Shown here one piece after another: positions 11,413 to 22,357 of a DNA stretch of 23,331 nucleotides. A program made the position numbers and the translations under genes. Below the pieces are notes generated by a model. It worked only from the letters and a program-made list of their open reading frames with translations. It had not been told where the DNA came from and ran no database searches. Location: the IMG/VR virus record IMGVR_UViG_3300008267_001924, positions 1 to 23,331 of that record, one strand, 5' to 3'. The stretch comes from a virus. Position 1 is the first letter of the stretch, and every line of letters begins with the position of its first letter.

Positions 11413-11895
11413 TTACGGAGTGGCGTTAGCCGGAACCGGAATAACCATGCTGTACGCCGCCACAGCCGTCATGGCCGAGGTAGCCGAGGCAGTCACTTCC
11501 GTGACCACGCCAGCGACCAGAGCGCCCGACACGGTGGCATCGTCCAACCGCCCTTCGGTGCTGGTGGTGTAGAGGGCAACTGCCGGGAGGCAGGAAGCCG
11601 ACACATTCACCCGCACCTTGCCGCCGAGATGCACCCAGCCGTAGTAGCCGGAGGCAATTGACACCTGCGCGAAGCCGACACGCTTGGTGTCAGCAACACG
11701 GGCGGTGGTGGCGTTCAGAGCGATGTTGGTGTTGGGGATAGCGACGGCGTTGTACTGCGCGATGGCCGAAGCCGCCTGCACATACACAGCCATGCCACCG
11801 TCGTCGAGCGTCACAACCGTGCCGGGATTGATGGCAGCAGTTGAGTCGGTCGAGCCGAGGGCGGGATACGCAAAACCATTTACGATAACAGCCAT
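11413..11895 (-). CDS. Small capsid-associated (decoration-like) protein
   Basis: 160 residues, rich in Ala, Val, Thr and Ser, all short beta strands: VVTLDDGGMAVYVQAASAI, then IASGYYGWVHLGGKVRVNV. No cysteine pair, membrane segment or catalytic motif. It directly follows the major capsid gene (14 bases after its stop), where phages commonly encode head decoration or stabilising proteins; a DUF2190-like spike is a close comparison (the strand containing GYYGWVHLGGKV fits). The start at 11895 has GGGGA 7 bases upstream. The role is inferred from position and composition, and it could also be a minor head protein. Confidence 0.66.
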   Translation of the reverse strand: MAVIVNGFAYPALGSTDSTAAINPGTVVTLDDGGMAVYVQAASAIAQYNAVAIPNTNIALNATTARVADTKRVGFAQVSIASGYYGWVHLGGKVRVNVSASCLPAVALYTTSTEGRLDDATVSGALVAGVVTEVTASATSAMTAVAAYSMVIPVPANATP

Positions 11896-11909: not shown

Positions 11910-13418
11910 TCAGTTAATCAACACGCCGCAGAACTGCGGGCCGGAGGAGGTAAGGTTACCCGCCCAGCCAATCAGTTTCACAATCATTCTGTTACTTCGC
12001 CTTTCGGCTACTGACCACCCTTTCGGATGGCGGGGCAACCTCTTCGGGTCACCCTCTGCGGCTTCTTTGGTTATACCGCAGTTCAGACTATCGCATGACA
12101 AGCCTTTTTCGCTTGTCCCCTCTCACTTAGTCGTTCAGCCTGCTTTCGCTTGGCCCCTGTTACCCGCTTCCGGGCTTCCAAGTCAATCAGAGAGGGTTTA
12201 TAGACGCCATTAGTGAATCGTAGGTTTAGCGTCTTGGTTGACAGCCTGACGGTCGCCGCCAATCGGGACAAAGTTTCTGTCCTTGTGGGGGCGGAACATC
12301 AGGTACTTGGTGTTGAGGAACCACATGTGGTTCGCGTTACCGACACCGCCGTTATACGACGACGAGCCGATACCACCGTCAAGCACCACATCCGAAGCCA
12401 TGCCAGCGCCGAAATACTTCAGCGAAGCAAAGCCAGCACCAGCCATGCCCGAACCGGAGTCCGTGATGCGCTGGATAGCCTGCAACGACTGCAAGTAGAA
12501 CTTGTAGTAGTTGTTGTCGGCAACGATGAGGTCAGGCTTGTCGGTACCGCGAATCAACTGCACCGCAACCGCATCCATGTAACCTTGGATGTTGCTGCTG
12601 GTCACAGCGCCCGTGCCGTCGCCAGTCGCCGAGAAGGCAACCGAACGCCAGAACTGCCACACCTGACGGTTGATGCCGCCGTAGGTGCCGGTGGACGGGC
12701 TGTCAGGCACAGCGGCAGCAAGACCCGTGAGGTTCTTACCCGCGTTGCCGGTGCCGTCACCGTACAGGTCACCGCTGATACGGTTCGCCAGTTGCGCCTC
12801 GGCAACCTCCATACGACCGTCGAGCAGGTCGATGATGGCTTCCTTACCCGAGTTCTGAATCATCTCCAGACCCGAGATGGACACAGCAGACGCCTGAACT
12901 GCGCCGCACTACCAAATGTTCACAAGGTTTCGTTACTTCCTTGCCGCCCTTTCGGACTGCTGCATATTTCTATGCAGAGCAGACTATCTCACAACCCTTT
13001 CGGGTTCTTTGCACTTCGAGCCACTTGGCCCTACGAGGAGTCACCCTCTAGTCGTTACGCCTTCCCTTTCGGGCTTGGCTCGGTGTTGCCTTCAACTAAA
13101 TGGTCAGGGTTCCACCGAATTCACAAAGTTCATTCAATGCAAATTGCTTTGCAAGGCCACTAGTATGTCAATGGGACTATTCTGACCGACATTCAATACC
13201 TCGTACCCAGAGTACGAATTTGTATTATTTGTCGTTGTATCATTGTACATGATTTCCTGAAGGATGGTTGAACCGCCCGAGAATGTCTTCACATTCCCGC
13301 GCTCCTTCAGGCGACGAAGCAACGCATTGTTGTTCGTGACATTATCCGCGAGTTCACCGCTACGGCTTTGGATGTTAGTGGCGATGATATCGCTGATACT
13401 GGAATTGGCATAAGCCAT
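11910..13418 (-). CDS. Major capsid protein, split by two group I introns; frame break in exon 2
   Basis: HK97-type coat protein in three exons: 13171-13418 (MAYANSSISDIIATN... to SP plus two bases of the next codon), 12228-12911 (SISGLEMIQNSGKEAIIDLL... to VNQDA) and 11910-11984 (IVKLIGWAGNLT to the stop). Without splicing, exon 1 runs into a stop at 13134-13136 and exon 2 at 12210. Splicing intron 2 joins NQDA to IVKLIGWAGN in frame, a natural coat C-terminus. Splicing intron 1 joins SPI to SAAQF, which fits the coat family as I remember it. After TTC at 12896 the frame must move by one base (net 1 or 10 bases missing) to reach QASAVSISGLEM. Spliced length is about 335-338 residues. AGGAG lies 7 bases before the ATG. 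Scaffold is upstream and a decoration-like gene downstream. Coat identity is strong; the exon 2 lesion is unexplained. Confidence 0.88.
11985..12227 (-). ncRNA. Group I intron 2 in the major capsid gene (243 nt, no ORF)
   Basis: Read on the minus strand. P1 is a 7-bp helix between exon AGACGCU and guide GGCGUCU, with the last exon U opposite G. P3: CCCUCUC with GAGAGGG. P5: GCCCG/CGGGU. P6: GGCC/GGCU with a GC-GAAA-GC arm. P7: GACUA with UAGUC. P8: GACAAGC/GCUUGUC. P9: CUGCGG/CCGCAG, followed by two GAAA-capped arms (CCAUCC/GGGUGG and GCC/GGC). P10: exon AUUG with UAAU. P4 (CUUG/CAGG) is the weakest helix. The terminal G is at 11985. Splicing restores the capsid frame exactly (GAC GCT joined to ATT GTG). 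Unlike intron 1 there is no pair of hairpins between P7 and P3'. It contains no ORF, so any mobility would need an endonuclease supplied from elsewhere. Confidence 0.87.
12912..13170 (-). ncRNA. Group I intron 1 in the major capsid gene (259 nt, no ORF)
   Basis: Read on the minus strand. P1: exon CCAU pairs with GUGG, with the exon's last U opposite G (U-G wobble) and the first intron U opposite A. P2: UGCAAA/UUUGCA with GCAA loop. P3: CUUUGUG with UGCAAAG. P4: CGGUG/CACCG. P6: GCC/GGC, with a CCC-GAAA-GGG arm. P7: GACUA (13041-13050 region) with UAGUC (12980-12990 region). Between P7 and P3' there are two extra hairpins (GAGG/CCUC and GGGCC/GGCUC), a group IA-like feature. P8: AACCC-GAAA-GGGUU. 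P9: CUGCAUA-GAAA-UAUGCAG. P10: the exon start UAGU pairs with ACUA next to the guide sequence, which sets the 3' splice after the terminal G at 12912. All required core helices are present. No homing endonuclease is encoded. Confidence 0.88.
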
Positions 13419-13441
13419 TTCAATACTCCTATATCAGTTAA

Positions 13442-14398
13442 TTACAACCGCGAACTGGATTCATCAAACGCTTCCTCCAGCATTGCGCGGCGACTATGCG
13501 CCTTGGGAGCCGTGTTGATTCCGGGTGTGGAACCTCTGACGCTAACCGCAGCAGCCCGAGCAGCCTTCGCCGCTCGGTCTTTCACTTGCGCTTGACGCTG
13601 CACAACCTCTGCCTGTCGGGCCGATTGCACTTTGTCAAACAAATCCGAATCCAACCGAATGGCCTTCTCGTAAGCATCGTCCAGCGTTTCAGCCACCCCG
13701 GATTGGAGCAACTGAATCATCGTCGGACGCGCTTCTTCAAAGTGTTCGGCTGTCATCGAAAAACTGTTGATTTCGTTCAGCAGGGTCTGGTTCTCTGCCA
13801 TCTCCTGCTGCTGTTTCCATCCCATGACCTCGCCGCGAACGGTGTTCAGTTCGTTCTGCAACTGGTACACCATCGGGTCAACCGAGGGTTGGGCGACCTG
13901 CTGACCGCCCTGCATGGCTTGGTTAAGGTTGATGCCGTAAGACGCAGCCAACTGCGTCAGGTACGCCATCTTCTGTTGTGGGGGGCTGTTACGCAGCGTG
14001 TAGTCGGCCTGCGCGAGAGCGGCAACCGCCTGCTCGGGCTTCATCCCTAGACCTTGGATGGTCGGCAGGTACGGCTCCAACGCCTGATTCATCGCATCGG
14101 CAAACTGCGCCTTGGAAAGCAGCGGCTCTACACCGCGCTTCATCTGCTCTTCGCGTTGCCAAGCGTATTCCTGAATCTTGGGGTCAGCCTTTGACCAATA
14201 TTCGTGGTATTCCTTCTTCCACGAAGCCGGGGGCTTGCGCCATACGGGTTCGTCGGCAGGGTCAACAGCCTGCTCTTCGGCCTGCTTCTCGGCGTACCGG
14301 CCTACCTCGTCTCTCGGCTGCGCTTCGGCGCTCTGCTCAAACTGCTGCTCCAGCAATTCCTTGCGGTCGAGCGTTTCTGCCTGTGGGGCTTGTTCCAT
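13442..14398 (-). CDS. Scaffolding protein
   Basis: 318 residues, almost all charged helix rich in Gln, Glu and Ala, with no cysteine: a dimeric, extended scaffold. The N-terminal ~60 residues are acidic and flexible (EAQPRDEVGRYAEKQAEEQA). The middle carries helical stretches (MKPEQAVAALAQADYTLR, then QLQNELNTVRGEVMGWKQQQ). The C-terminus is basic with PGINTAPKAHSRRAM, the kind of short capsid-binding tail that scaffolds use to dock on the inside of the coat. It sits directly upstream of the major capsid gene, 23 bases from its start, which is the standard place. Its own start is coupled by TAATG to the upstream gene. Role: it guides procapsid assembly and is lost before or during DNA packaging. 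Confidence 0.84.
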   Translation of the reverse strand: MEQAPQAETLDRKELLEQQFEQSAEAQPRDEVGRYAEKQAEEQAVDPADEPVWRKPPASWKKEYHEYWSKADPKIQEYAWQREEQMKRGVEPLLSKAQFADAMNQALEPYLPTIQGLGMKPEQAVAALAQADYTLRNSPPQQKMAYLTQLAASYGINLNQAMQGGQQVAQPSVDPMVYQLQNELNTVRGEVMGWKQQQEMAENQTLLNEINSFSMTAEHFEEARPTMIQLLQSGVAETLDDAYEKAIRLDSDLFDKVQSARQAEVVQRQAQVKDRAAKAARAAAVSVRGSTPGINTAPKAHSRRAMLEEAFDESSSRL

Positions 14399-14745
14399 TA
14401 CCGTCTCCTGTGGGGGTCGTGGGTAAATCGGACTTCATCGCGCAACCGCGACAACAACCGATTAGCATCCGAATGGGTCATGTTCGCCAACTGGTGACGC
14501 AACACATCCACTCGATTGCTTTTCGGCTTCTCTTTATTGACAAACTTGGTCGGGTCTTCGTTACCGACCTCAATGCAACCGTTAGCCTTGAGGTGCCGAC
14601 GGTGCTGCGAACGCGAGGTAATCATGCGTCCGTCAATCATGGACTTGTACGGCGCGATGTCGGGAAGGATGTAGTGATGTCGCCCACGCTCATCGCGCTT
14701 GCGCTCTACAAACTCGCCATCGACCATCACATAAGTTCGTTTCAT
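14398..14745 (-). CDS. Conserved-type phage protein near scaffold, function unknown
   Basis: 115 residues. The N-terminal half reads YVMVDGEFVERKRDERGR then YILPDIAPYKSMIDGRMITS and RSQHRRHLKANGCIEVGNED; an 'SxIDG..I.SR' stretch followed by a His/Asn/Gly end is a pattern I associate with small podovirus proteins next to the scaffold gene. The C-terminal half is helical and basic (VDVLRHQLANMTHSDANRLL). No cysteines, so no zinc finger. It overlaps both neighbours by a few bases (ATGA and TAATG junctions), arguing for tightly coupled translation. No function is supported; a capsid-assembly accessory role is only suggested by location. Confidence 0.68.
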   Translation of the reverse strand: MKRTYVMVDGEFVERKRDERGRHHYILPDIAPYKSMIDGRMITSRSQHRRHLKANGCIEVGNEDPTKFVNKEKPKSNRVDVLRHQLANMTHSDANRLLSRLRDEVRFTHDPHRRR

Positions 14746-15386
14746 AGCAGCAACAATACTTCTTCGTCGTCCATCTCTTGATGCTCTCGCATCAACCTTT
14801 CCACTCGGTCAAGGTCGCCTAACAAGGCATCCCAGTTAACCGTGGGTTGCTCAATGTTAACAGTTAAATGCGGTTCAACAATCCTCTCTGCAACTTCTGG
14901 TCGTGTCTCATGCAGTTGTTCGTAAACCGAGATTAACTCTTGCTTGCGCCTTTCGCGCTTCGCTTGGTCTTCTTCCCAATTTTTCTTACGCTTTTTGTCG
15001 CCTTCGTGCGAGTCGTCGAGGACGATGATTGGCTGGACAGAGGCGGTGAGGGTTCCGGTTGCTCCGGTCGCTTCCACACCGGTAAGCGCAGCCTCTCCTT
15101 GAAGGTCGAGAGAACCTGTTTGACCAGATGCTCCCACACCGGAAAGGGCAACCTCGACCGAATCGGTTTCATCTCCAACGACTCCAACGGCGCTGACACC
15201 CGTAAGGCCCGCCGTAATGCTTGCTCCGAGGCTTCCCGTCTCGCCTGTAGCAGAATTGCCCGAGAGCGTGACGCTTTGCTGGGTGCCGAGGTTACCAACG
15301 CCACCGGTTCCGGTGACGCTTGTGACCGGGAGGCTGTCCCATTGCGCGTCATCCCATGTACCTGTGTTCCACGGCCCCTTCGCCAC
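14742..15386 (-). CDS. Repeat protein: ~20-residue Gly/Thr-rich repeats plus charged C-terminus
   Basis: 214 residues. The N-terminus is WNTGTWDDAQWDSLP, a Trp-rich opening seen on phage structural proteins. Residues ~37-117 hold about four imperfect repeats of roughly 20 residues centred on L(S/T)GxxAxGxxGSL, for example LSGNSATGETGSL, LSGVGASGQTGSL and LTGVEATGATGTL, giving a short beta-strand array. The C-terminal ~85 residues are highly charged helix (DKKRKKNWEEDQAKRERRKQ) ending in EEVLLLL. The start is a GTG at 15386; no other in-frame start fits better. The build suggests an exposed fibre or spike that attaches by its C-terminus. The repeats differ enough to be old. Confidence 0.64.
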   Translation of the reverse strand: MAKGPWNTGTWDDAQWDSLPVTSVTGTGGVGNLGTQQSVTLSGNSATGETGSLGASITAGLTGVSAVGVVGDETDSVEVALSGVGASGQTGSLDLQGEAALTGVEATGATGTLTASVQPIIVLDDSHEGDKKRKKNWEEDQAKRERRKQELISVYEQLHETRPEVAERIVEPHLTVNIEQPTVNWDALLGDLDRVERLMREHQEMDDEEVLLLL

Positions 15387-15392
15387 GACTCA

Positions 15393-15848
15393 TCACACAA
15401 TCCGCAGGAGCGCGGTTGAGGCATCGTTGGTCGGCATGGTCAGGATGAAGTTACCCGCCGTGACCGTCTGCGACCCGAAGGTGTAAACCGCTACCGCCTT
15501 GTCACCCTGACTGCTGTTGTACATCAACACCGCGTCAAACGCCGTCGTCAGCGTCACCCCGGTGTAGGTCAGCGAGGCCGAGGGTGTCCAATACGCCGTA
15601 GTTCCCGTTGAGGTGGGCGCTGTGGCGTTCGTTACCGTAATGCCCCCTGCGCTGTACCCTGCGCCCGACACCTCTCCAGAGGCGTTATAGGCGGTCGTAG
15701 CAGCGTTAACCGTGGCGCTGGCAAGGTAGAGCGCAGCCTTGAAGGTGTCCTTGTTAGTGTTTGCCCGAGTCGGGGGCGTGCCGATGGCGTGTACGCCGCC
15801 CAGAATCTCGACCTTGAACGAGGTACACATTGCCTGCGTGTTAGGCAT
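15393..15848 (-). CDS. Virion-associated hypothetical protein, beta-rich
   Basis: 151 residues. It begins TSFKVEILGGVHAIGTP and continues with Ala/Thr/Ser-rich beta strands, ending GSQTVTAGNFILTMPTND. I recognise this style from small phage proteins near the portal that are often called hypothetical and may be head or fibre-associated, but I cannot name a family. It has no signal peptide or catalytic motif. The start overlaps the stop of the 61-residue gene upstream (TGATG), and its stop lies 6 bases before the next start, so it is co-translated with them. Confidence 0.62.
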   Translation of the reverse strand: MPNTQAMCTSFKVEILGGVHAIGTPPTRANTNKDTFKAALYLASATVNAATTAYNASGEVSGAGYSAGGITVTNATAPTSTGTTAYWTPSASLTYTGVTLTTAFDAVLMYNSSQGDKAVAVYTFGSQTVTAGNFILTMPTNDASTALLRIV

Positions 15849-16033
15849 CAGAATTTCTCCAGTTCGGGGAACAGCGCCGGGGCTTCCTTGAGGTGGACAT
15901 GGACAGACCGATGGACAAGTTCACCTTCGTGCCAGTATTCGACCCAGCGCGTGTGTTCGTGGTCGTTGTTAACCTCGCCCTCGCGCTTATCCAGCAGGGC
16001 TTCGTCCATCATCCCTTTGGTCGTCGTAATCAT
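15848..16033 (-). CDS. Small hypothetical protein
   Basis: 61 residues, charged and His-rich in the middle (HEHTRWVEYWHEGELVHRSV), with no recognised domain. The short segment WVEYWHEGELVHRSVHVHLK could form two strands. It overlaps the portal stop at its start (ATGA) and the next start at its end (TGATG), so it is well supported as a translated operon member despite its size. No function can be assigned. Confidence 0.6.
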   Translation of the reverse strand: MITTTKGMMDEALLDKREGEVNNDHEHTRWVEYWHEGELVHRSVHVHLKEAPALFPELEKF

Positions 16034-18282
16034 TGCAGTCGCGGCTCCAGTTCAAGGGTCTGCTGCACCGCCTCCACGCCCACAGCCCGACCGTCAGGGC
16101 CACGAATGATGCGCTTCGGGGCAGTCAGCGTTGACAGGGCAGAGCGCACGCCCTTCATGTTCTCGTCGTTGGACGATGCCATCTGACCGTAGAGCGCCAC
16201 GAGATTCTGCATGGCCTGCCTTACCTCGCCGCCCATGTCCTGCATGACGCGCTCGGTGACGGCTTGCTGCTGCTCCAGAGCGGGGATGTCGAGGCCGGGG
16301 TTAGCCGAGATGCGTGCCACCATGATTTTGGTTGCAGCGTCCAAGTCTGCCTTGTACTTCGCCATCTGCTGTTCGGCGGCGATTTTCTGTTGTGCAAGTT
16401 GCGCCTCAAACTGCTGTTTCAGCGATTCAAGTTGCTGGTCGTTCTGCGCCTTCATCGCCTCGACCTGCGAAGCCTGCTGCAACTTCGCCTGCTCAACTTG
16501 CATCATCATCTGCGCCTTTGCCTGCTCGGCCTGCGCGACCATCTGTGCGCGTTGCGCCTCCGGGTTCTCACGCGGTTGCTGTGCAGCCATCTTCAATTGT
16601 TCCACCGCTGCGTCAATGCTGCCCTCAAGCGGTCGAGCCGCCTTGAACGCCTGCACGCCGTACTTGAGCAAGTCCATCATCACCGGGATAAGTTCGGGCG
16701 ATGCCTGACCGACCGGGAGCGCCTGCTGCAAGAAGCCACCGAAGGCTTGCAGAAACTGCATCCTGTCCTGCTTCTCTTGCGCCTCGTCAATCTGCACAAG
16801 GCTGTCAGCGGCGATGTCGATGCGGAAGTTACGCAGCGGCTTGTCGCGGATGAGTTGCAACGCCTGCGGGATGAGCGCCTTGTCAGCGTCTGACATCTGC
16901 TCGGCGGCGGCATAGGCGAGGATGGTTTGCGGCTGATAATGCAGGCACATCACCTGCGCCTTCAGCCGGATGACCTCGGTAGCGTAGAGCGCCACATCCT
17001 CCTGCATCGACCGCAGACGCAGGCCAGCGTACTGACCCTTAATCTGCTGCGCCGTTGCAGTCTCCGAGGCGGCAGACTGACCACGGATGATGTCAGCGAT
17101 GCCCGTGATTTCGTAAATCTGGCCCTTGATGTCGGCACGCGCTTGGTAGCATTGCAGAAGCGCCTGCGCGATGGTGTCGAGCGGCAGAAGGTCGATGCTG
17201 CCCTTGAGGCCGCCCTTCTCGCCAAACGCTGCCCACTTGTCTACCGGGATGAGGGCGTTGTTGTCGCCTTCGGTCATCAGGCGTTGGAGCGCAGGCTGCG
17301 AAGCGTCATACACGCCGCGCACCCGCAGAGCCTTCACCAATCCGTCGATGCGGTCGGACAGGATGTCCAACTCCATCGCTTGGTCTTGGTACAGCACGAA
17401 GTCAGGGACGGGTACGAGGTTGTCCGAGGTCGTCGTGGCGTACAACGGTTTCGGGCAGGGGAAGAACCCTTCCACGCCGAGCGGGTCGTCGCGCACATCG
17501 ATAAAGTGCGGCATCCCCTTGCAGAACCAATAGACCTTCAGCGTCTCCTTGTCCCAGAGTTCGCAAATCTTGGCGAGGTTGTACTGACGCTTGCTGTCGC
17601 GGTAAGCGTTGAGCGTCTCCGGGCCTTGGTCGGTCGGGATGGTGCGTGCCATCTCCTCGCCAAACCGCTCCACGATGGCCTCACGGGTCATGTAGACCCA
17701 GCGCCATACCTGTCCTACCTCTTCCCAAGTGCGCCCTTGAGAGTGCCCGAAGTCCTTCCAATGCACATAGTCAACGGGGGCGCGTTCGTACTCGACCTGC
17801 TCCAGCGGCGGCGGCGCACCTTCACCGGCTTCGATGTCCGAGGTGATGGATAGACCGTCATCCTCAACGCCGATTGGTGCTACATGGGGTTCGTACCGCA
17901 CCCACGAAGTTCCGCGACCGCCGAGGAATCTATCCTCGACATCGTATTTCATGGTCGAGCGGAAGTCGGGGTAATGCTCAATCTCAAAGTCTACGGCGCG
18001 TTCAATGAGGCGTGATGCCACGCGGCCCACGGGGTCGTTGTCACCGAAGCGGCGCTGTACATCAGCCTTCGGGAGTTTGGCGTAGACGGCAGGAATCAGC
18101 GTCTGGACATTCGACCACAGGATGTTGAACTTCGCCGTCTCGTTGCCGCCAGAGCCACGGGTATCGTCGCGGTAACGCTTGACGAGTTTCTTGACACGCG
18201 CCTGCCACTTGGCGAACTCGTTCTCGTAAGTACCCACAGCACGCAGGTACTTCTCTAGTTCTTGGCTAACGCGCTCGTCCAT
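16030..18282 (-). CDS. Portal protein, P22-like
   Basis: 750 residues, close to the ~725 of the P22 portal. It forms the dodecameric ring at one capsid vertex through which DNA enters and leaves and to which the tail binds. Visible: the N-terminal helix-rich clip/stem region (LEKYLRAVGTYENEFAKWQ; FNILWSNVQTLIPAVYAKLP ~47-66, a typical portal stretch), the wing (VHWKDFGHSQGRTWEE; SRAAS-type helix AYRDSKRQYNLAKICEL), the stem helices (IYEITGIADIIRGQSAASET ~395-414), and a very long Gln/Ala coiled-coil C-terminus (~560-690; AQMVAQAEQAKAQMM, QVEAMKAQNDQQ). The start at 18282 follows AAGGACTG, just past the upstream stop. The coiled-coil 'barrel' is long, as in P22. Confidence 0.88.
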   Translation of the reverse strand: MDERVSQELEKYLRAVGTYENEFAKWQARVKKLVKRYRDDTRGSGGNETAKFNILWSNVQTLIPAVYAKLPKADVQRRFGDNDPVGRVASRLIERAVDFEIEHYPDFRSTMKYDVEDRFLGGRGTSWVRYEPHVAPIGVEDDGLSITSDIEAGEGAPPPLEQVEYERAPVDYVHWKDFGHSQGRTWEEVGQVWRWVYMTREAIVERFGEEMARTIPTDQGPETLNAYRDSKRQYNLAKICELWDKETLKVYWFCKGMPHFIDVRDDPLGVEGFFPCPKPLYATTTSDNLVPVPDFVLYQDQAMELDILSDRIDGLVKALRVRGVYDASQPALQRLMTEGDNNALIPVDKWAAFGEKGGLKGSIDLLPLDTIAQALLQCYQARADIKGQIYEITGIADIIRGQSAASETATAQQIKGQYAGLRLRSMQEDVALYATEVIRLKAQVMCLHYQPQTILAYAAAEQMSDADKALIPQALQLIRDKPLRNFRIDIAADSLVQIDEAQEKQDRMQFLQAFGGFLQQALPVGQASPELIPVMMDLLKYGVQAFKAARPLEGSIDAAVEQLKMAAQQPRENPEAQRAQMVAQAEQAKAQMMMQVEQAKLQQASQVEAMKAQNDQQLESLKQQFEAQLAQQKIAAEQQMAKYKADLDAATKIMVARISANPGLDIPALEQQQAVTERVMQDMGGEVRQAMQNLVALYGQMASSNDENMKGVRSALSTLTAPKRIIRGPDGRAVGVEAVQQTLELEPRLQ

Positions 18283-18284
18283 GT

Positions 18285-18578
18285 TCAGTCCTTCTTGTTT
18301 CGCGCAGAGATGGCACTAGCCTTCGCACGCGCATCCTCTTTGCTCGACGCACCCCACGCACGCAGCGCGAGAGCGAGGCGGGTAGGCTTGCCGTTCTTCT
18401 CCATCGGGCCAGCCATGTTGCCCATGCGTGCGAGGAACGAGGCGCGGCGAGGATTGTCGCCACCCTTCACGGGAGGCTTGAGCGTGCCGCCCGTCTCGGC
18501 CTTATACGATGCGCGGCCCTTTGCGTTGAGGCCACCTTTTTCATTTTTGCCTTCCTTCCGCTGCCACGCTGCGCTCAT
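18285..18578 (-). CDS. Small basic DUF6321-like protein
   Basis: 97 residues, strongly basic. Key pieces: SAAWQRKEGKNEKGGLNAKG (~2-21), GDNPRRASFLARMGNM (~40-55) and KPTRLALALRAWGASSKED (~64-82). I recognise this as the DUF6321 type, small proteins found in phage and in some bacteria, of unknown function. The positive charge and the Gly/Lys pattern at the N-terminus could mean contact with DNA or an acidic protein. It is coupled upstream by TAATG and lies 2 bases before the portal start, so it is part of the terminase-portal cluster. Confidence 0.72.
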   Translation of the reverse strand: MSAAWQRKEGKNEKGGLNAKGRASYKAETGGTLKPPVKGGDNPRRASFLARMGNMAGPMEKNGKPTRLALALRAWGASSKEDARAKASAISARNKKD

Positions 18579-18742
18579 TAGTAACCCTTCTTCTCGGGTT
18601 TAGCGGTCTTGGCAGACTCGCGGAACGCCGCTGCAGTCGGCGCACCAGCCTCTCCCGGCTTACGCATACGCTCACCCGACCCAGCCTTGATACGCTCCTG
18701 CTTGGCTAGGATGTTGGCGTAGAGTCCGGGCTTGCGGTTCAT
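18578..18742 (-). CDS. Very small basic hypothetical protein
   Basis: 54 residues, starting MNRKPGLYANILAKQERIKA then MRKPGEAGAPTAA and ending AKTAKPEKKGY. Lys/Arg-rich, with no domain. A start 19 codons further up lies inside the upstream gene and gives a non-natural sequence, so the ATG at 18742, overlapping the previous stop (ATGA), is preferred. Small proteins with a Lys/Pro-Gly-Leu-Tyr-Ala-Asn opening next to the terminase and DUF6321-type gene are typical of phage packaging clusters. Function unknown. Confidence 0.62.
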   Translation of the reverse strand: MNRKPGLYANILAKQERIKAGSGERMRKPGEAGAPTAAAFRESAKTAKPEKKGY

Positions 18743-19044
18743 TTGCTGAACAGCCCAACTGCGAGAACAGCAGCGCCTGCGCCCGTCGTGACCTTCCACG
18801 GGCCGGTAGCCGCGTTGAGGCCAAGTTCGAGGCTATACACACCGATGGGCGTGTTGGCAGGGATTGCAAGCACGGTCGTGCTGCCGTCGATAATGCTAAC
18901 GGTCGAACTTACAGCCGTGGATACCGTCACCACGATGCGATGCAGGTAGTCGTTTGCTGCGCCATTGGTGCCAAGCACCTGCGCGGTCTGCGAGGCGGCG
19001 ACCGTCTCGTAGGGATACTGATACGGAAGATTAACGCCACTCAT
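18739..19044 (-). CDS. Small beta-rich phage protein
   Basis: 101 residues: PYQYPYETVAASQTAQVLGT, then YLHRIVVTVSTAVSSTVSII and VYSLELGLNAATGPWKVTTG. An all-beta single domain with no cysteines or charged patches. It may be a small head or neck protein; comparable proteins appear next to phage terminase and portal genes. It overlaps the terminase stop at its start (ATGA) and the next start at its end, so it is co-translated. Family not identified. Confidence 0.62.
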   Translation of the reverse strand: MSGVNLPYQYPYETVAASQTAQVLGTNGAANDYLHRIVVTVSTAVSSTVSIIDGSTTVLAIPANTPIGVYSLELGLNAATGPWKVTTGAGAAVLAVGLFSK

Positions 19045-20373
19045 ATTCGCGCCCTCCTTGAGACGCTGCGCTCATGCACTTGCCACATATCGTTAAGGGT
19101 GACTTCGTTCTGCGGCCCAACGATAAGCACCTTGCCCTCTAACGGCTTTTGCGCGGCAGGCTCCTGCCTCCACGCAACTGCCAACATACGGAAAGCGTCA
19201 GCAGGGTGTGATGTCCAATCATGTCGGGGTGATGCCCTGAACGCTTTCTTGTCCTCATCATACTCCCGTTGGTACTGCCGTAAAGCCTCTATCCCGTCGC
19301 CACATTTTACGGAATTGAACCAAGTTCGGGGCAACATTTGGCGAACTGCTTGGATTCCGTCCTGCAGGCCAATGTTAGGAACCACCGACAGATTGGCTAT
19401 CCCGAGGTGGTCGGCCAACTGCTCGACGATGCTGCGACCCGTCTGCAGGCTCTTTGCCCGTGCGTCATGCGGCAGGTAATGCTTGGCATACCGATAACCT
19501 TTGTTAACGACTACCTCTGCGATAGCGCGGATGTCTGCACCCGAGATGGCGAAGAAGTCGATGACGCGCACTTCGCCGCTGATGACCTGATACCACCAGA
19601 TAGCCGTGTCGTCGCGGTAGCCCAAGTCCCATGCCGTGTACACAGGGTAGCCGGGGTCGTGCTGCACCTCTGGGCTGATGCGGTGGTCTGCCTGTCGCAT
19701 CTCTGTGCCGTAGAACGCGCCAAGGATAGCCGCCTCGAAACTGCACTCGTACTCTTGGAGGTACTGGTCTTCCGACAACTGCGCCTTTGCTGCGTTGAGT
19801 TCACCCTGCGGTAGTAGCCCTGATTGGCTAGCGGGTAGGCGTAGCAGGAACCACTCATCGGGCAGGCGTTGGGCAGTCTCGTAGATGTCCCAGAACTGGT
19901 TCTTGCCCTTCGGCGTACCGGCGAACACAGCCCACCCTTGCTTGTCTGATAGGGCTGGGCGTATGACATTACCGAACACGCTGGGCTTGAAGTCGCCGTA
20001 TTCGTCTAGGTAGATACCGCTGAACCCGAGGCCGCGCATGGCATCTGCGTTGTCGGCTCCAAACAGACTGACCTTTACGCCGTTAACCAGCGTAATAGTC
20101 ATCTGCTGCTCGTTTGCGTCCTTGATGAGCGGTTCGGAGAAGAACTTAAAATAATCCCATGCGATGCGCCGTGCCATGTTTTGGTATGGCGCGACGAATC
20201 CGAACAAACCGTTTGGCCCCTTGTACATAATGGCCGCCCGAATGATGTCGTTGACGGCTGCAACTGTTTTACCTGCACCTGCGGCGGTGGGCGACTAAAC
20301 ACGCCCACCGCTTGCTCCTGTCATGGAAAGGCAAAAACGCCTTTCGAGGGTTATATGGCAGGACTACATCCAT
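19041..20373 (-). CDS. terL: Large terminase subunit (TerL), frame break at the Walker A loop
   Basis: DNA-packaging ATPase and headful nuclease. The true start at 20373 (MDVVLPYNPRKAFLPFHD) is in a different frame from the rest: 31 codons end in RWACLVAHRR, then the frame moves by +1 and continues GKTVAAVNDIIRAA. Removing 4 bases near 20280 restores VAHRRAGKTV, a textbook P-loop, and gives 442 residues, a usual TerL length. Other motifs are intact: Walker B IYLDEY (Asp/Glu ~122-123), the coupling motif FAGTPKG (~150-155), nuclease Asp in TAWDLGY (~248), HDARAKS (~301) and SHPADAFR (~385). TerL starts inside the end of the HNH gene. As written, only a frameshifting ribosome would make the full protein; a later start would lack the P-loop. 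Function is clear, state uncertain. Confidence 0.88.
20271..20282. repeat. Tandem GCAGGT pair at the terminase Walker A codons
   Basis: Two adjacent GCAGGT units on the minus strand overlap the HRR-AGKT codons. A 4-base difference from a normal P-loop sequence (CGC CGC then GCA GGT AAA) accounts for the +1 shift. It looks like partial slippage or duplication. Confidence 0.55.
20284..20311 (-). other. Perfect 10-bp stem-loop in the TerL leader, just before the frame break
   Basis: Arms GCGGTGGGCG and its exact complement surround an 8-base loop; a second 7-bp stem-loop (GAAAGGC/GCCTTTC) lies upstream at 20326-20345. Both fall inside the TerL coding frame between the HNH gene and the Walker A loop, and the frame break (20280) follows about three bases after the second arm. 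Neither has a T-run, so they are not intrinsic terminators. They may be chance products of codon use, a regulatory fold, or the cause of the adjacent lesion. Confidence 0.6.
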
Positions 20374-20852
20374 GCCCAATTCTTCCCGCGCCAAACTTCG
20401 TAAATTGCGCTTTTGCTTACGCCATACTTTTTTGCGTATTCAATGCCTGACAACGCTTTTGCACGAATGTCCTTCACGGCATCTTCTGTTAACCGCGCCC
20501 ATTTCGCATTGCGACCACGATTGTTTGGCGTGAAGTTGCGGCCCTTACGCACGCAATCTTGCATATTGTCTGACAGCGTTCCGCAGAACAGATGATTCGG
20601 GTTAACGCAAAGAGGCTGGTCGCAGTGATGCAATATGCACTCGCCTTTAGGAATATCGCCCCTGTAAAGCCGCCATGCTACTCGATGCGCTTTCGCGGTT
20701 CCCTCATCGCGGCGACCGAGGCCAATGACCCCGTATCCGTGTTCCTTCGTCGCGCCCGTCCAAAGCCAGCAACCCGTGTTCGGCTCGGGCATAACCTTAT
20801 CGTGGAACCTATCCCACAATGACCGGCGATACCGATGGTCGCCCTTTGCCAT
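20364..20852 (-). CDS. HNH endonuclease inserted between terminase genes
   Basis: 162 residues. A zinc-type HNH: CWLWTGA (~28-34), AHRVAWRLYRG (~55-65), then HHCDQPLCVNPNHL (75-88), where His75/His76, Cys77, Cys82, Asn86 and His87 form the HNH_3-type centre, followed by DNMQDCVRKGRN (~95-106). The C-terminus (LTEDAVKDIRAKALSGIEYA, then YGVSKSAIYEVWRGKNW) is a helix-turn-helix used by homing endonucleases to hold their site. It starts at the TAATG that also ends the small terminase gene and overlaps the TerL start by 10 bases, a clean insertion between two normally adjacent genes. It has no intron core of its own, so it is a free-standing homing-type enzyme. Base composition is a little AT-richer than the terminase body. 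Confidence 0.9.
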   Translation of the reverse strand: MAKGDHRYRRSLWDRFHDKVMPEPNTGCWLWTGATKEHGYGVIGLGRRDEGTAKAHRVAWRLYRGDIPKGECILHHCDQPLCVNPNHLFCGTLSDNMQDCVRKGRNFTPNNRGRNAKWARLTEDAVKDIRAKALSGIEYAKKYGVSKSAIYEVWRGKNWAWM

Positions 20853-21112
20853 TACTTGGGTTCGCCCCAACGGATGTTCAGTTCCTGCGGTTTGCCATCT
20901 ACGCCGCTGTGTTCGTGGCGTGCGAGTTTAGGCACATGGTATTCAAGTAAGTCGCTGAAGCACTTAAACGCCGCCTCTGCGCCCTTCTCTTGGTGTATCT
21001 CGTCAAGCCAGCCCTGCAAGCGGTCTGCGTTGCCGTCTACGAAACGAGAGATAGCCTCCCTCGCTGCTTGGGTTGACTTGTTCGGGCTTCCTTTGGGTCT
21101 TCCTGCTGGCAT
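20852..21112 (-). CDS. terS: Small terminase subunit (TerS)
   Basis: 86 residues, short for a TerS but with the usual start, PAGRPKGSPNKSTQAAREAI, a basic GRP/KG segment that often precedes a DNA-binding helix, then a helical core (ISRFVDGNADRLQGWLDEIH) and an end, PKLARHEHSGVDGKPQELNI, typical of TerS C-termini that contact TerL. TerS recognises the packaging site and loads TerL. Order (TerS before TerL, portal following) supports the call. It is followed directly by the HNH gene (TAATG). Upstream there is a 68-base AT-rich gap containing TATATT and no convincing -35, and no strong ribosome site before the ATG at 21112, so transcription probably continues from above. Confidence 0.76.
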   Translation of the reverse strand: MPAGRPKGSPNKSTQAAREAISRFVDGNADRLQGWLDEIHQEKGAEAAFKCFSDLLEYHVPKLARHEHSGVDGKPQELNIRWGEPK

Positions 21113-21180
21113 ACCGGGGTTAATATATCTTGATTGTTTATCTAATGAAACTATCTTTGCCGCTGTTGCCTTGGGTTAAC

Positions 21181-22357
21181 TTACTTACGCTCCAGTATGC
21201 GTACCTTCTTTTCCTCGCCGGGGAATACGACAAAGTTGCGCGTTCCGGTGGCGCTCAATCCGCGACTACGACTACCTGCGTCTAGGTACTTGATGCCGGG
21301 GATACTAGCGTTTTGTAATTTTTCCGATGCTGTAACTTTCAACGGTTTTTCTGGTGATTCTCTTCCGCCGCGCTGAAGATGAATTCGATACAAATATTCT
21401 CCCGTCCAATTTTTCCATTTGCTTTCGTCAGGCGCATTTGGCATGGCGCGTATAGCGGCTTTTACAAACTCTGATTGCTCACTTAACGGTTTTTCCCAAT
21501 CGAGCATATGGTCTACCATTTCGTCGGGTAGGTCGACGGTATAAAGCGCGCCCGTTTGTGGTGCAGCGCCCTTTTTCATTTGTTGCAGATAATTTAGCGC
21601 GTCTTGCGTCTCTTGGAACGCGCCTTGCCGTAAATACGGCGAATCCTTGTGGGCGCTCATTGTTGCAACTTCTTTTTTTATTGCAGCAATAGCCTTATTT
21701 ACATTTCCGTCAGTTGCTTGCAATGCCATCGTTGCTTTTCGCGCTGGTGGGCTTTGCGCTGATTGATATGTTTTCGCGACATCAGGACTTTCGGCAAAGT
21801 AAATTCCGTGCCCGTAAGCCTGTTCGCCCTCACCCGTCCTCACCTGTGCCAATCTTGCTAGCGTCAAACTCGCCCAGCGGGTTGGCCTCCGTTTCGGGGA
21901 ACCGATGCGGGGTGCCGTGGTACACATCTAGTTCAGCGATGGGGGCGGTTTTGCGTAGCGCGGCGGCTATCCGCATGGGGTCAACCATCGACCCTGCGTA
22001 TTCACCGGCAGCGCGGGGGCTGGTCATCGCCTGCTGTGCGCGTTCAACCTCGCCCTGCACAAGAGCCTTGCCCGTCTGAACCGGCTGCGTAACGATTGCC
22101 TTGCCGATGGTACCGAGGTCTTGGGCGGCTTGGTCTAGGCGAGGGGTTGGGCGGTCGGCGGCTTGGGCGTACTCTGCCGTCGTCATACGCCCCATGTTGG
22201 GGTCGCTCGTCAGCGCCTCGTATGCAAGTCCTCCGACGCTCCTAGCACGGTCTGCGAGGTTCTCCACCACACCGCCACCAAACTCGGCGGCTTGGCTCTT
22301 CAGCCGCTCCAAGTAGTCGAGCGCGGCGGCAACCCGTGATGGCGCAGGCTTTGCCAT
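21181..22357 (-). CDS. Phage ADP-ribosyltransferase (ART-PolyVal-like), frame break at 10-bp duplication
   Basis: Two open frames make one 388-residue protein if a 10-base tandem copy is removed. N-terminal ~140 residues are helical (LDYLERLKSQAAEFGGGVV; RAQQAMTSPRAAGEYAGSM). The ART domain begins with DVYHGTPHRF (~144-153), EFDASKIGTGE and, in the second frame, GEQAYGHGIYFAES, then ALYTVDLPDEMVDHMLDWE, TGEYLYRIHLQRGG, IPGIKYLDAGSRSRG and NFVVFPGEEKKVRIL. This order matches phage-associated ADP-ribosyltransferases of the polyvalent-protein class, which transfer ADP-ribose from NAD to host or phage targets. The break leaves the N-terminal frame stopping at 21830. The part before it is GC-rich and the part after AT-richer, suggesting a recombination joint. 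Placed before the terminase genes, it may be packaged or injected early (inference). Confidence 0.8.
21825..21844. repeat. 10-bp imperfect tandem duplication inside the ADP-ribosyltransferase gene
   Basis: On the minus strand GGTGAGGACG is followed directly by GGTGAGGGCG (9 of 10 identical). One copy fits the conserved IGTGEGEQAYGHG motif; the second shifts the frame by +1. Deleting either copy restores one continuous frame. Confidence 0.85.

What the first reader, a model, noticed from the sequence alone, without database searches (positions are those of the whole stretch)
11985..13170. Two ORF-less group I introns interrupt one phage major capsid gene
The coat protein appears as three disconnected frames because two compact ribozymes (259 and 243 nt) lie in it. 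Each has P1 with the U-G wobble, P3, P6, P7 (GACUA/UAGUC), P8, P9 and P10, read directly from the sequence. Group I introns in phages are best known from DNA-metabolism and lysis genes; two in the most abundant structural gene, each ending in a joinable codon, is unusual. Expression of capsid would depend on two RNA splicing events, a possible control point.
Basis: partly seen in the sequence, partly recalled or inferred. Interest (0 to 1): 0.92.

Follow-up and report, generated by a model that had tools for sequence, protein, structure and literature searches.

The report
Two self-splicing introns in capsid gene
The coat-protein gene of this phage is interrupted by two small self-splicing RNA elements; relatives without them show exactly where they were inserted, and the kin of one of them that were sampled sit mostly in coat-protein genes of several unrelated phage groups.

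Summary
Relatives carry the gene with neither, either or both. Intron 1 matches Rfam RF00028 (56 bits). Intron 2 matches no Rfam model, but 48 relatives show strong covariation, and a model built only from copies in other genes finds it at E 6e-38. The gene family has at least eight insertion sites (five mapped exactly) and alleles with three introns. In two pattern samples of intron 2's lineage, 79 of 102 dereplicated host-gene groups were labelled major capsid genes of six PHROG families. Best explanation: selfish self-splicing elements that spread horizontally; no evidence for a control function. The window copy has a 13-nt deletion in exon 2, so even after splicing it reads out of frame; an otherwise identical record lacks that deletion. 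Introns in phage capsid genes, even several per gene, are in print (mycobacteriophage LittleE, crAss-like phages). What looks new is the Rfam-invisible, capsid-biased lineage and its polymorphism. Splicing is inferred, not shown.

The parts
13171..13418 (-). capsid exon 1 (82 whole codons, codon 83 split after its second base)
   Evidence: PHROG 9953 major head protein, E 4.6e-17; exon mapping
12912..13170 (-). intron 1 (called site IV here), ORF-less group I intron, 259 nt; splits an ATT codon as AT|T
   Evidence: RF00028 56.2 bits over 13182-12960; empty alleles in 75 of 78 readable relatives; boundaries
13049..13053 (-). intron 1, P7 5' strand GACUA
   Evidence: sequence, RF00028 alignment
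12982..12986 (-). intron 1, P7 3' strand UAGUC
   Evidence: sequence, RF00028 alignment
12228..12911 (-). capsid exon 2
   Evidence: PHROG 9953, E 2.6e-70
12893..12894 (-). place of a 13-nt deletion in exon 2 relative to the 78 readable relatives of set 1; causes a frameshift in this assembly
   Evidence: record L204 is otherwise identical over 9 kb and has no deletion
11985..12227 (-). intron 2 (called site V here), ORF-less group I intron, 243 nt, between codons GCT and ATT
   Evidence: empty alleles in 54 of 78 readable relatives; R1 142 bits, E 5.7e-38; covariation
12190..12196 (-). intron 2, P3 5' strand (CCCUCUC)
12118..12124 (-). intron 2, P3 3' strand (GAGAGGG)
12128..12132 (-). intron 2, P7 5' strand GACUA
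12086..12090 (-). intron 2, P7 3' strand UAGUC
12202..12208 (-). intron 2, internal guide (7 contiguous pairs with the 5' exon end, U.G at the splice site)
11910..11984 (-). capsid exon 3 (24 codons and stop)

Best explanation
Both insertions are self-splicing group I introns without their own homing endonuclease. In the late transcript each ribozyme would use a bound guanosine to cut after the U of its U.G pair, join the exons and leave, so that one 339-aa capsid protein is made. They are selfish, near-neutral passengers: present or absent in otherwise similar phages, and moved between diverged capsid genes by recombination, most likely double-strand-break repair started by an endonuclease acting in trans or once carried in cis. 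SHOWN: exact insertion and empty alleles, a conserved and covarying group I core, intron sequence shared between diverged capsids, endonuclease-bearing insertions in the same gene family. INFERRED: splicing in the cell, near-neutrality, and the route of movement.
For: Empty and filled alleles at both sites with exact lengths, in all four combinations. Joined exons give a full-length capsid in 80 of 84 loci with a start codon and a mapped intron (some contigs were fetched twice); the four others are L001 (the window's own locus, 99 aa) and L011, L164 and L204, whose joined frames end at 329, 329 and 131 aa, where their coverage of the gene ends. RF00028 56.2 bits for intron 1. For intron 2's lineage, 93.9% of 2218 cells pair against 73.8% in shuffles, and 31 of 49 pairs change on both sides; R1, built from 30 copies in genes other than this capsid family, scores 142 bits at intron 2. 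Intron V is more alike than its flanking exons in 475 of 496 pairs of 32 loci (the window counted twice); where exons are 70-80% identical (20 pairs) introns average 96.8%. Larger insertions in capsid relatives hold antisense endonuclease ORFs: L435 (Pfam HNH_5), L458 and L436 (PHROG endonuclease hits).
Against: No RNA evidence; no spliced junction of site IV in viral contigs (0 matches). The window copy is frameshifted downstream of intron 1, so this assembled allele would not make capsid even if spliced. The window's HNH gene is not linked to the introns: a close copy was found only in L204's record among 50 records, 26 of which hold the terminase, so no acting endonuclease was identified. 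Ribozyme constraint could explain part of the high intron identity. Intron 1's folding energy is ordinary.
Confidence: 0.88

Rival explanations
1. The lineage spreads at the RNA level: excised intron RNA reverse-splices into the most abundant late message (capsid mRNA), is copied to DNA and recombines in. This would explain many sites in one gene, no endonuclease, and capsid genes of unrelated phages as targets.
For: At least eight sites in one capsid gene family; 79 of 102 dereplicated host-gene groups are labelled major capsid genes of six PHROG families and most other labelled ones are virion genes; copies at sites I, II and V are of one lineage and are 231-254 nt long, too short for an endonuclease ORF. 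Reverse splicing as a proposed route of ectopic spread is described in PMC3984707 (passages).
Against: Copies at sites I and V of one gene are only 54-57% alike, and the closest copies between sites of any genomes are 70% (II-V) and 73% (I-II), so recent hopping within the gene is not seen. Endonuclease-bearing insertions exist in the same gene family, endonuclease ORFs follow some copies elsewhere (L376, L334), and conservation alone makes a capsid gene a good homing target.
Confidence: 0.17
2. The introns are a control point: capsid synthesis is gated by splicing (for example by guanosine supply or translation), and phages keep them for that.
For: Two introns lie in an essential structural gene and the reading frame meets a stop inside each, so full-length product depends on splicing.
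Against: 54 of 78 and 75 of 78 relatives lack them, and 62 of 80 loci of the second set showed no intron in the mapping (60 of 80 after the model search). Sites and combinations vary.
Confidence: 0.06
3. Assembly artefact or dead pseudogene: the capsid gene is simply broken in this contig.
For: The window has a 13-nt frameshifting deletion in exon 2 and a 4-nt insertion at the terminase Walker A region.
Against: Intron 1 recurs in other records at 93-100% identity (L204, L205, L007, L029, L031, L201, L163) and intron 2 in 24 of 78 set-1 loci; joined frames are intact in 80 of 84 loci; compensatory base changes show selection on the RNA.
Confidence: 0.02

Closest known systems
Group I intron in the major capsid gene of mycobacteriophage LittleE (Cluster J)
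   Same: Group I-type intron in a phage major capsid gene; identified by intronless relatives; 5' exon ends in U, intron ends in G; splicing shown there by RT-PCR (PMC3706429, passages). A 265-bp spliced insertion in a tail gene is described in the same passages.
   Different: LittleE has one capsid insertion of 819 bp with an endonuclease-like ORF on the bottom strand; here two ORF-less introns of 259 and 243 nt, and no RNA evidence.
Intron-rich MCP gene of crAss-like phages, Zeta group
   Same: Several group I introns in one phage MCP gene (ORF split into five fragments; PMC7886860, passages).
   Different: Those introns were identified through intron-encoded endonuclease domains in gut phages; here the introns are ORF-less, and site by site intronless alleles are in hand.
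Twin introns of phage Twort ribonucleotide reductase, and introns of Jug phages
   Same: More than one group I intron in one gene; Jug introns average about 206 nt (PMC12363816, passages). Twort: title in the reference list of PMC3984707 and a mention in PMC3888941 (passages).
   Different: Interrupted genes named in the passages seen are ribonucleotide reductase, terminase and polymerase, not capsid.
Insertion between two P22 coat protein CDS of MW202674.1
   Same: Same lineage as intron 2 (74% identity over 86% of the intron; row in the covarying alignment), between two CDS both annotated as P22 coat protein.
   Different: Different capsid family; the CDS table shows no intron there.

Membership tests
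Group I self-splicing intron | P3-P8 / P4-P6 core with the guanosine-binding P7 helix | tested here: met
   Intron 1: RF00028 alignment. Intron 2: P3, P5, P6, P8 and P9 with changes on both sides; P7 present and invariant in 48 of 48, which by itself says nothing on covariation.
Group I self-splicing intron | P1 with U.G at the 5' splice site; P10 | tested here: met
   intron 2 has 7 contiguous P1 pairs and 4 P10 pairs; intron 1 has 4 and 5. P1 of 6 or more pairs occurs in 9% of 2280 control positions and in 16 of 38 tested variants, all with 7 pairs; the printed rows of sites I-IV have only 3-5 and some have no P10, so P1 is good evidence for intron 2 only.
Group I self-splicing intron | Intron ends in G, 5' exon ends in U | tested here: met
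   The rule was used to settle one-base ambiguities, so it is partly by construction.
Group I self-splicing intron | Precise insertion relative to intronless alleles | tested here: met
Group I self-splicing intron | Guanosine-initiated splicing and exon ligation | not testable with these tools
   Needs RNA.
Rfam RF00028 model (Intron_gpI) | Score at or above 50 bits | tested here: inconclusive
   Intron 1 met (56.2 bits). Intron 2 not met: no hit at gathering nor at E<=5; no copy of its lineage in the loci was hit either. The model is a detector, not the definition of the class.
Mobile group I intron with homing endonuclease | Endonuclease ORF inside the intron | tested here: not met
   259 and 243 nt, too short for such an ORF. 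Larger insertions in relatives have such ORFs.

The most novel reading that the evidence does not exclude
There is a lineage of minimal group I introns, mostly without an endonuclease and unseen by the standard Rfam model, that specialises in phage major capsid genes across at least six PHROG capsid families, and it reaches them by RNA-level invasion (reverse splicing into the most abundant late mRNA) rather than by DNA homing.
Probability: 0.15. Interest if true: 0.85.

Novelty: new variant of a known kind. Interest (0 to 1): 0.62.

Why it matters
Capsid genes are common markers for finding and classifying uncultured phages (general knowledge). In one capsid subfamily, 20 of 80 loci fetched by exon similarity carry at least one group I intron, and the copies of intron 2's lineage that I tested are invisible to RF00028, so such genes are read as broken or as two proteins, as in MW202674.1. 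The polymorphic sites give a natural test of how endonuclease-free group I introns spread and why this lineage prefers capsid genes.

Tried and rejected
RF00028 with lenient thresholds for intron 2: nothing. The window's HNH gene as a trans-acting homing enzyme: not associated (two 39-40% and two 27% homologues in other records). Spliced-junction signatures in viral contigs: site IV none; site V five contigs, empty alleles with the same junction, two of them already held as L035 and L036; no proof of splicing. Host identification by genome contigs: only five MAG contigs of mixed taxonomy, not informative. A match in L343, at first noted as an intron in an RNA-phage replicase, is a chance match inside an unbroken replicase frame with no P7 partner.

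Limits and dropped rows. Copies without the P4 motif or with distant P7 halves were set aside before the host-gene counts: 8 of 121 in the first sample and 39 of 124 in the second; of those 39, 20 carried a capsid label and 19 none, a lower share than in the 85 kept (67 capsid). Keeping all, 87 of 124 were labelled capsid. The P7 check excludes an ORF in P8 only; ORFs elsewhere in copies outside the PHROG 9953 gene were not excluded. Labels come from the nearest long open frame and representatives' hits, so single labels may be a neighbouring gene; some are weak (PHROG 267 at 3.6e-6; P22 portal 26.0 bits and one P22 coat 22.2 bits, both below Pfam's cut-off). Of six unlabelled representatives tried, three gave no PHROG hit, one a weak capsid hit (E 0.0047), one an unknown family and one tape measure. 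The set-1 query held five intron-encoded residues, which favours intron-2 alleles in its ranking. L165 and L174 had no unique boundary. L076, L212 and L269 were missed by one chaining step and recovered. P9.2 pairs in only 58% of cells. Taxonomy look-up, structure prediction and fold search were not used.

Full report
What is there. On the minus strand, between the ORF at 14398-13442 (no PHROG match) and the ORF starting at 11895, lies the major head protein gene, PHROG 9953. It reads as three frames. Eighty viral loci encoding close relatives of exon 2 were fetched, the best 80 of 565 (L014 and L015 are one contig). In them the distance between exons 1 and 2 is 42 nt in 75 of 78 readable loci and 301 nt in three (L007, L029, L031); the distance between exons 2 and 3 is 0 in 54 of 78 readable loci, and 24 carry an insertion, 243 nt in 21 (231 in L076, 241 in L034, 245 in L018). 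Two loci lack exon 1 and two lack exon 3 and are not counted in the respective figure. Alleles with neither, either and both introns exist.

They are group I introns. Intron 1 scores 56.2 bits against RF00028, threshold 50. Intron 2 has no Rfam hit. I collected its relatives with a 20-nt core pattern and from the other loci held, took 48 dissimilar ones of 82 distinct sequences, aligned them and counted a hand-drawn structure (P3, P4, P5, P6, P6a, P7, P8, P9, P9.1, P9.2): 93.9% of 2218 cells pair against 73.8% in shuffles, 466 cells change on both sides against 143, 31 of 49 pairs have such changes, and sliding the partners drops pairing to 41-45%. P9.2 pairs in only 58% of cells. The number of further pair types is not above the shuffles (84 against 80.5). 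The structure was drawn from the window sequence, which favours it on paired cells but not on compensatory changes. As an independent test, a covariance model of 30 copies from genes other than this capsid family finds the window at 12204-12049 with 142 bits, E 5.7e-38; the only other match in the window is 15.9 bits inside intron 1. Intron 2 folds better than all 200 shuffles (z -4.92); intron 1 does not stand out (z -1.53).

The window allele is damaged. Relative to the 78 readable relatives, exon 2 lacks 13 nt just after intron 1; joined exons stop after 99 aa, whereas L205 and L007 give 339 aa. L204, a separate IMG/VR record, matches window 12780-21837 with no mismatch over an alignment of 9071 positions and a single gap opening; its site IV gap is intact. 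The deletion is thus an assembly error or a very young mutation, and intact copies of the same phage exist.

The gene family is a hot spot. A second set of 80 loci, fetched with an exon-only query from a 62%-identical capsid, and the pattern loci showed further sites. Counting by codon of the window-type protein: about 13 (L458), 22 (L438, L456), 52-53 (site I), 61 (II), 72 (III), 83-84 (IV, intron 1), about 145 (L320) and 315 (V, intron 2); more distant relatives add about 75 (L435), 287 and about 310 (L436). Sites I-V were mapped to the base in 112 copies, duplicates of contigs and the window included. Two contigs (L243, L186) carry three introns, I+III+V. In set 2, mapping found introns in 18 of 80 loci and the model added L212 and L269, 20 of 80 in all. 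Sites I, II and V belong to intron 2's lineage: model R1 hits 19 of the 80 set-2 loci strongly. Sites III and IV share core motifs with each other though they are at most 52% alike; site III scores 41.8 and 38.8 bits against RF00028, below threshold, and site IV of L163 63.3.

Host genes of intron 2's lineage. After dereplicating flanks at 85% identity, 79 of 102 groups are labelled major head protein, the rest tape measure 4, portal 5, tail 1, unknown 2 and unlabelled 11. Representatives hit PHROG head families 14242, 1357, 283, 267 and 1328 besides 9953 and Pfam P22 coat, SU10 MCP and Phage_capsid_4. A capsid gene is about 4.4% of this window; the binomial tail for 79 of 102 is 6e-86 at that share and 4e-58 at 10%, though groups are not fully independent and labels are not all certain. 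Two copies in ribonucleotide reductase genes (L129, L200) have 400 nt or more between P7 halves, and an ORF in L129 matches GIY-YIG. For intron 1's lineage, a 17-nt pattern gave 50 stretches; 28 have a group I P7 signature, of which 24 lie in the PHROG 9953 capsid gene, one (L449) in an SU10-type capsid gene, one (L431) by a weak DNA polymerase match, the other two unassigned. Relatives of intron 1 among cultured phages look different: of 140 records, 40 were listed; the named functions under the match are HNH endonuclease, DNA polymerase, primase/helicase or AAA ATPase and terminase, many rows are hypothetical, promoter or unannotated, and none listed is capsid. So capsid bias is not shown to be a general feature of phage group I introns; both pattern samples start from window sequences and may follow lineage.

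Movement. Intron 2 is more conserved than the exons beside it in 475 of 496 pairs of loci; at 70-80% exon identity the introns average 96.8%, but where exons fall below 70% (175 pairs) introns average 69%. Intron 1 is 97.3% identical in L201, whose capsid is 88% identical in protein. This speaks for horizontal spread, with ribozyme constraint as a partial alternative. The window's HNH gene (20870-20364, PHROG 1872 and Pfam HNH_3) was closely matched only in L204's record among 50. Endonuclease ORFs do occur, antisense, in large insertions of this capsid family: L435 (HNH_5), L458 and L436. My reading is that ORF-less forms are stripped or trans-mobilised descendants; RNA-level spread is the bold alternative.

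What is known. Searches of the held library (listings) and passages of papers show capsid introns in LittleE, a cited one in Tuc2009, and multi-intron MCP genes in crAss-like phages. In these searches I found no paper on a capsid-biased lineage of this kind or on several polymorphic sites in one capsid family; many subscription papers are not held. I therefore file this as a new variant of a known kind.

Noticed in passing
window 20277-20280 and 20364-20870 (-): The large terminase frame is shifted by a 4-nt insertion at the Walker A region, shared by record L204; the open frame is 417 aa against 451-520 in the next 12 matches. An HNH gene sits directly upstream, and the terminase DNA beside it is only about 72% identical to L294, although the protein downstream is 96% identical, as if converted together with the HNH insertion.
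   Followed up: partly
L206 2989-3207 (MW202674.1): A complete phage record annotates P22 coat protein as two CDS with an insertion of intron 2's lineage between them.
   Followed up: partly
L207 2497-2898 (OR420741.1, Roseobacter phage CRP-118): Ribonucleotide reductase annotated as two CDS with a 400-nt gap whose start resembles intron 2.
   Followed up: no
L307 35 and 306; L325 639 and 932; L313 2201, 3192 and 3721: Two core motifs of intron 2's lineage only 271-293 nt apart, and a locus with three; possibly tandem introns.
   Followed up: no
L376, L334: GIY-YIG/NUMOD3 and endonuclease VII ORFs begin shortly after intron copies; the frame before the L376 copy has only a weak capsid match and that before L334 none.
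   Followed up: no
L035, L036, L465, L466, L467: Empty alleles at site V with exactly the exon junction seen in intron-bearing alleles: ready targets or precise losses.
   Followed up: no
L014 and L015 (contig 3300034018_000027): The capsid gene with intron 2 occurs near both ends of one 36.6-kb contig, perhaps an overlap of a circular genome.
   Followed up: no
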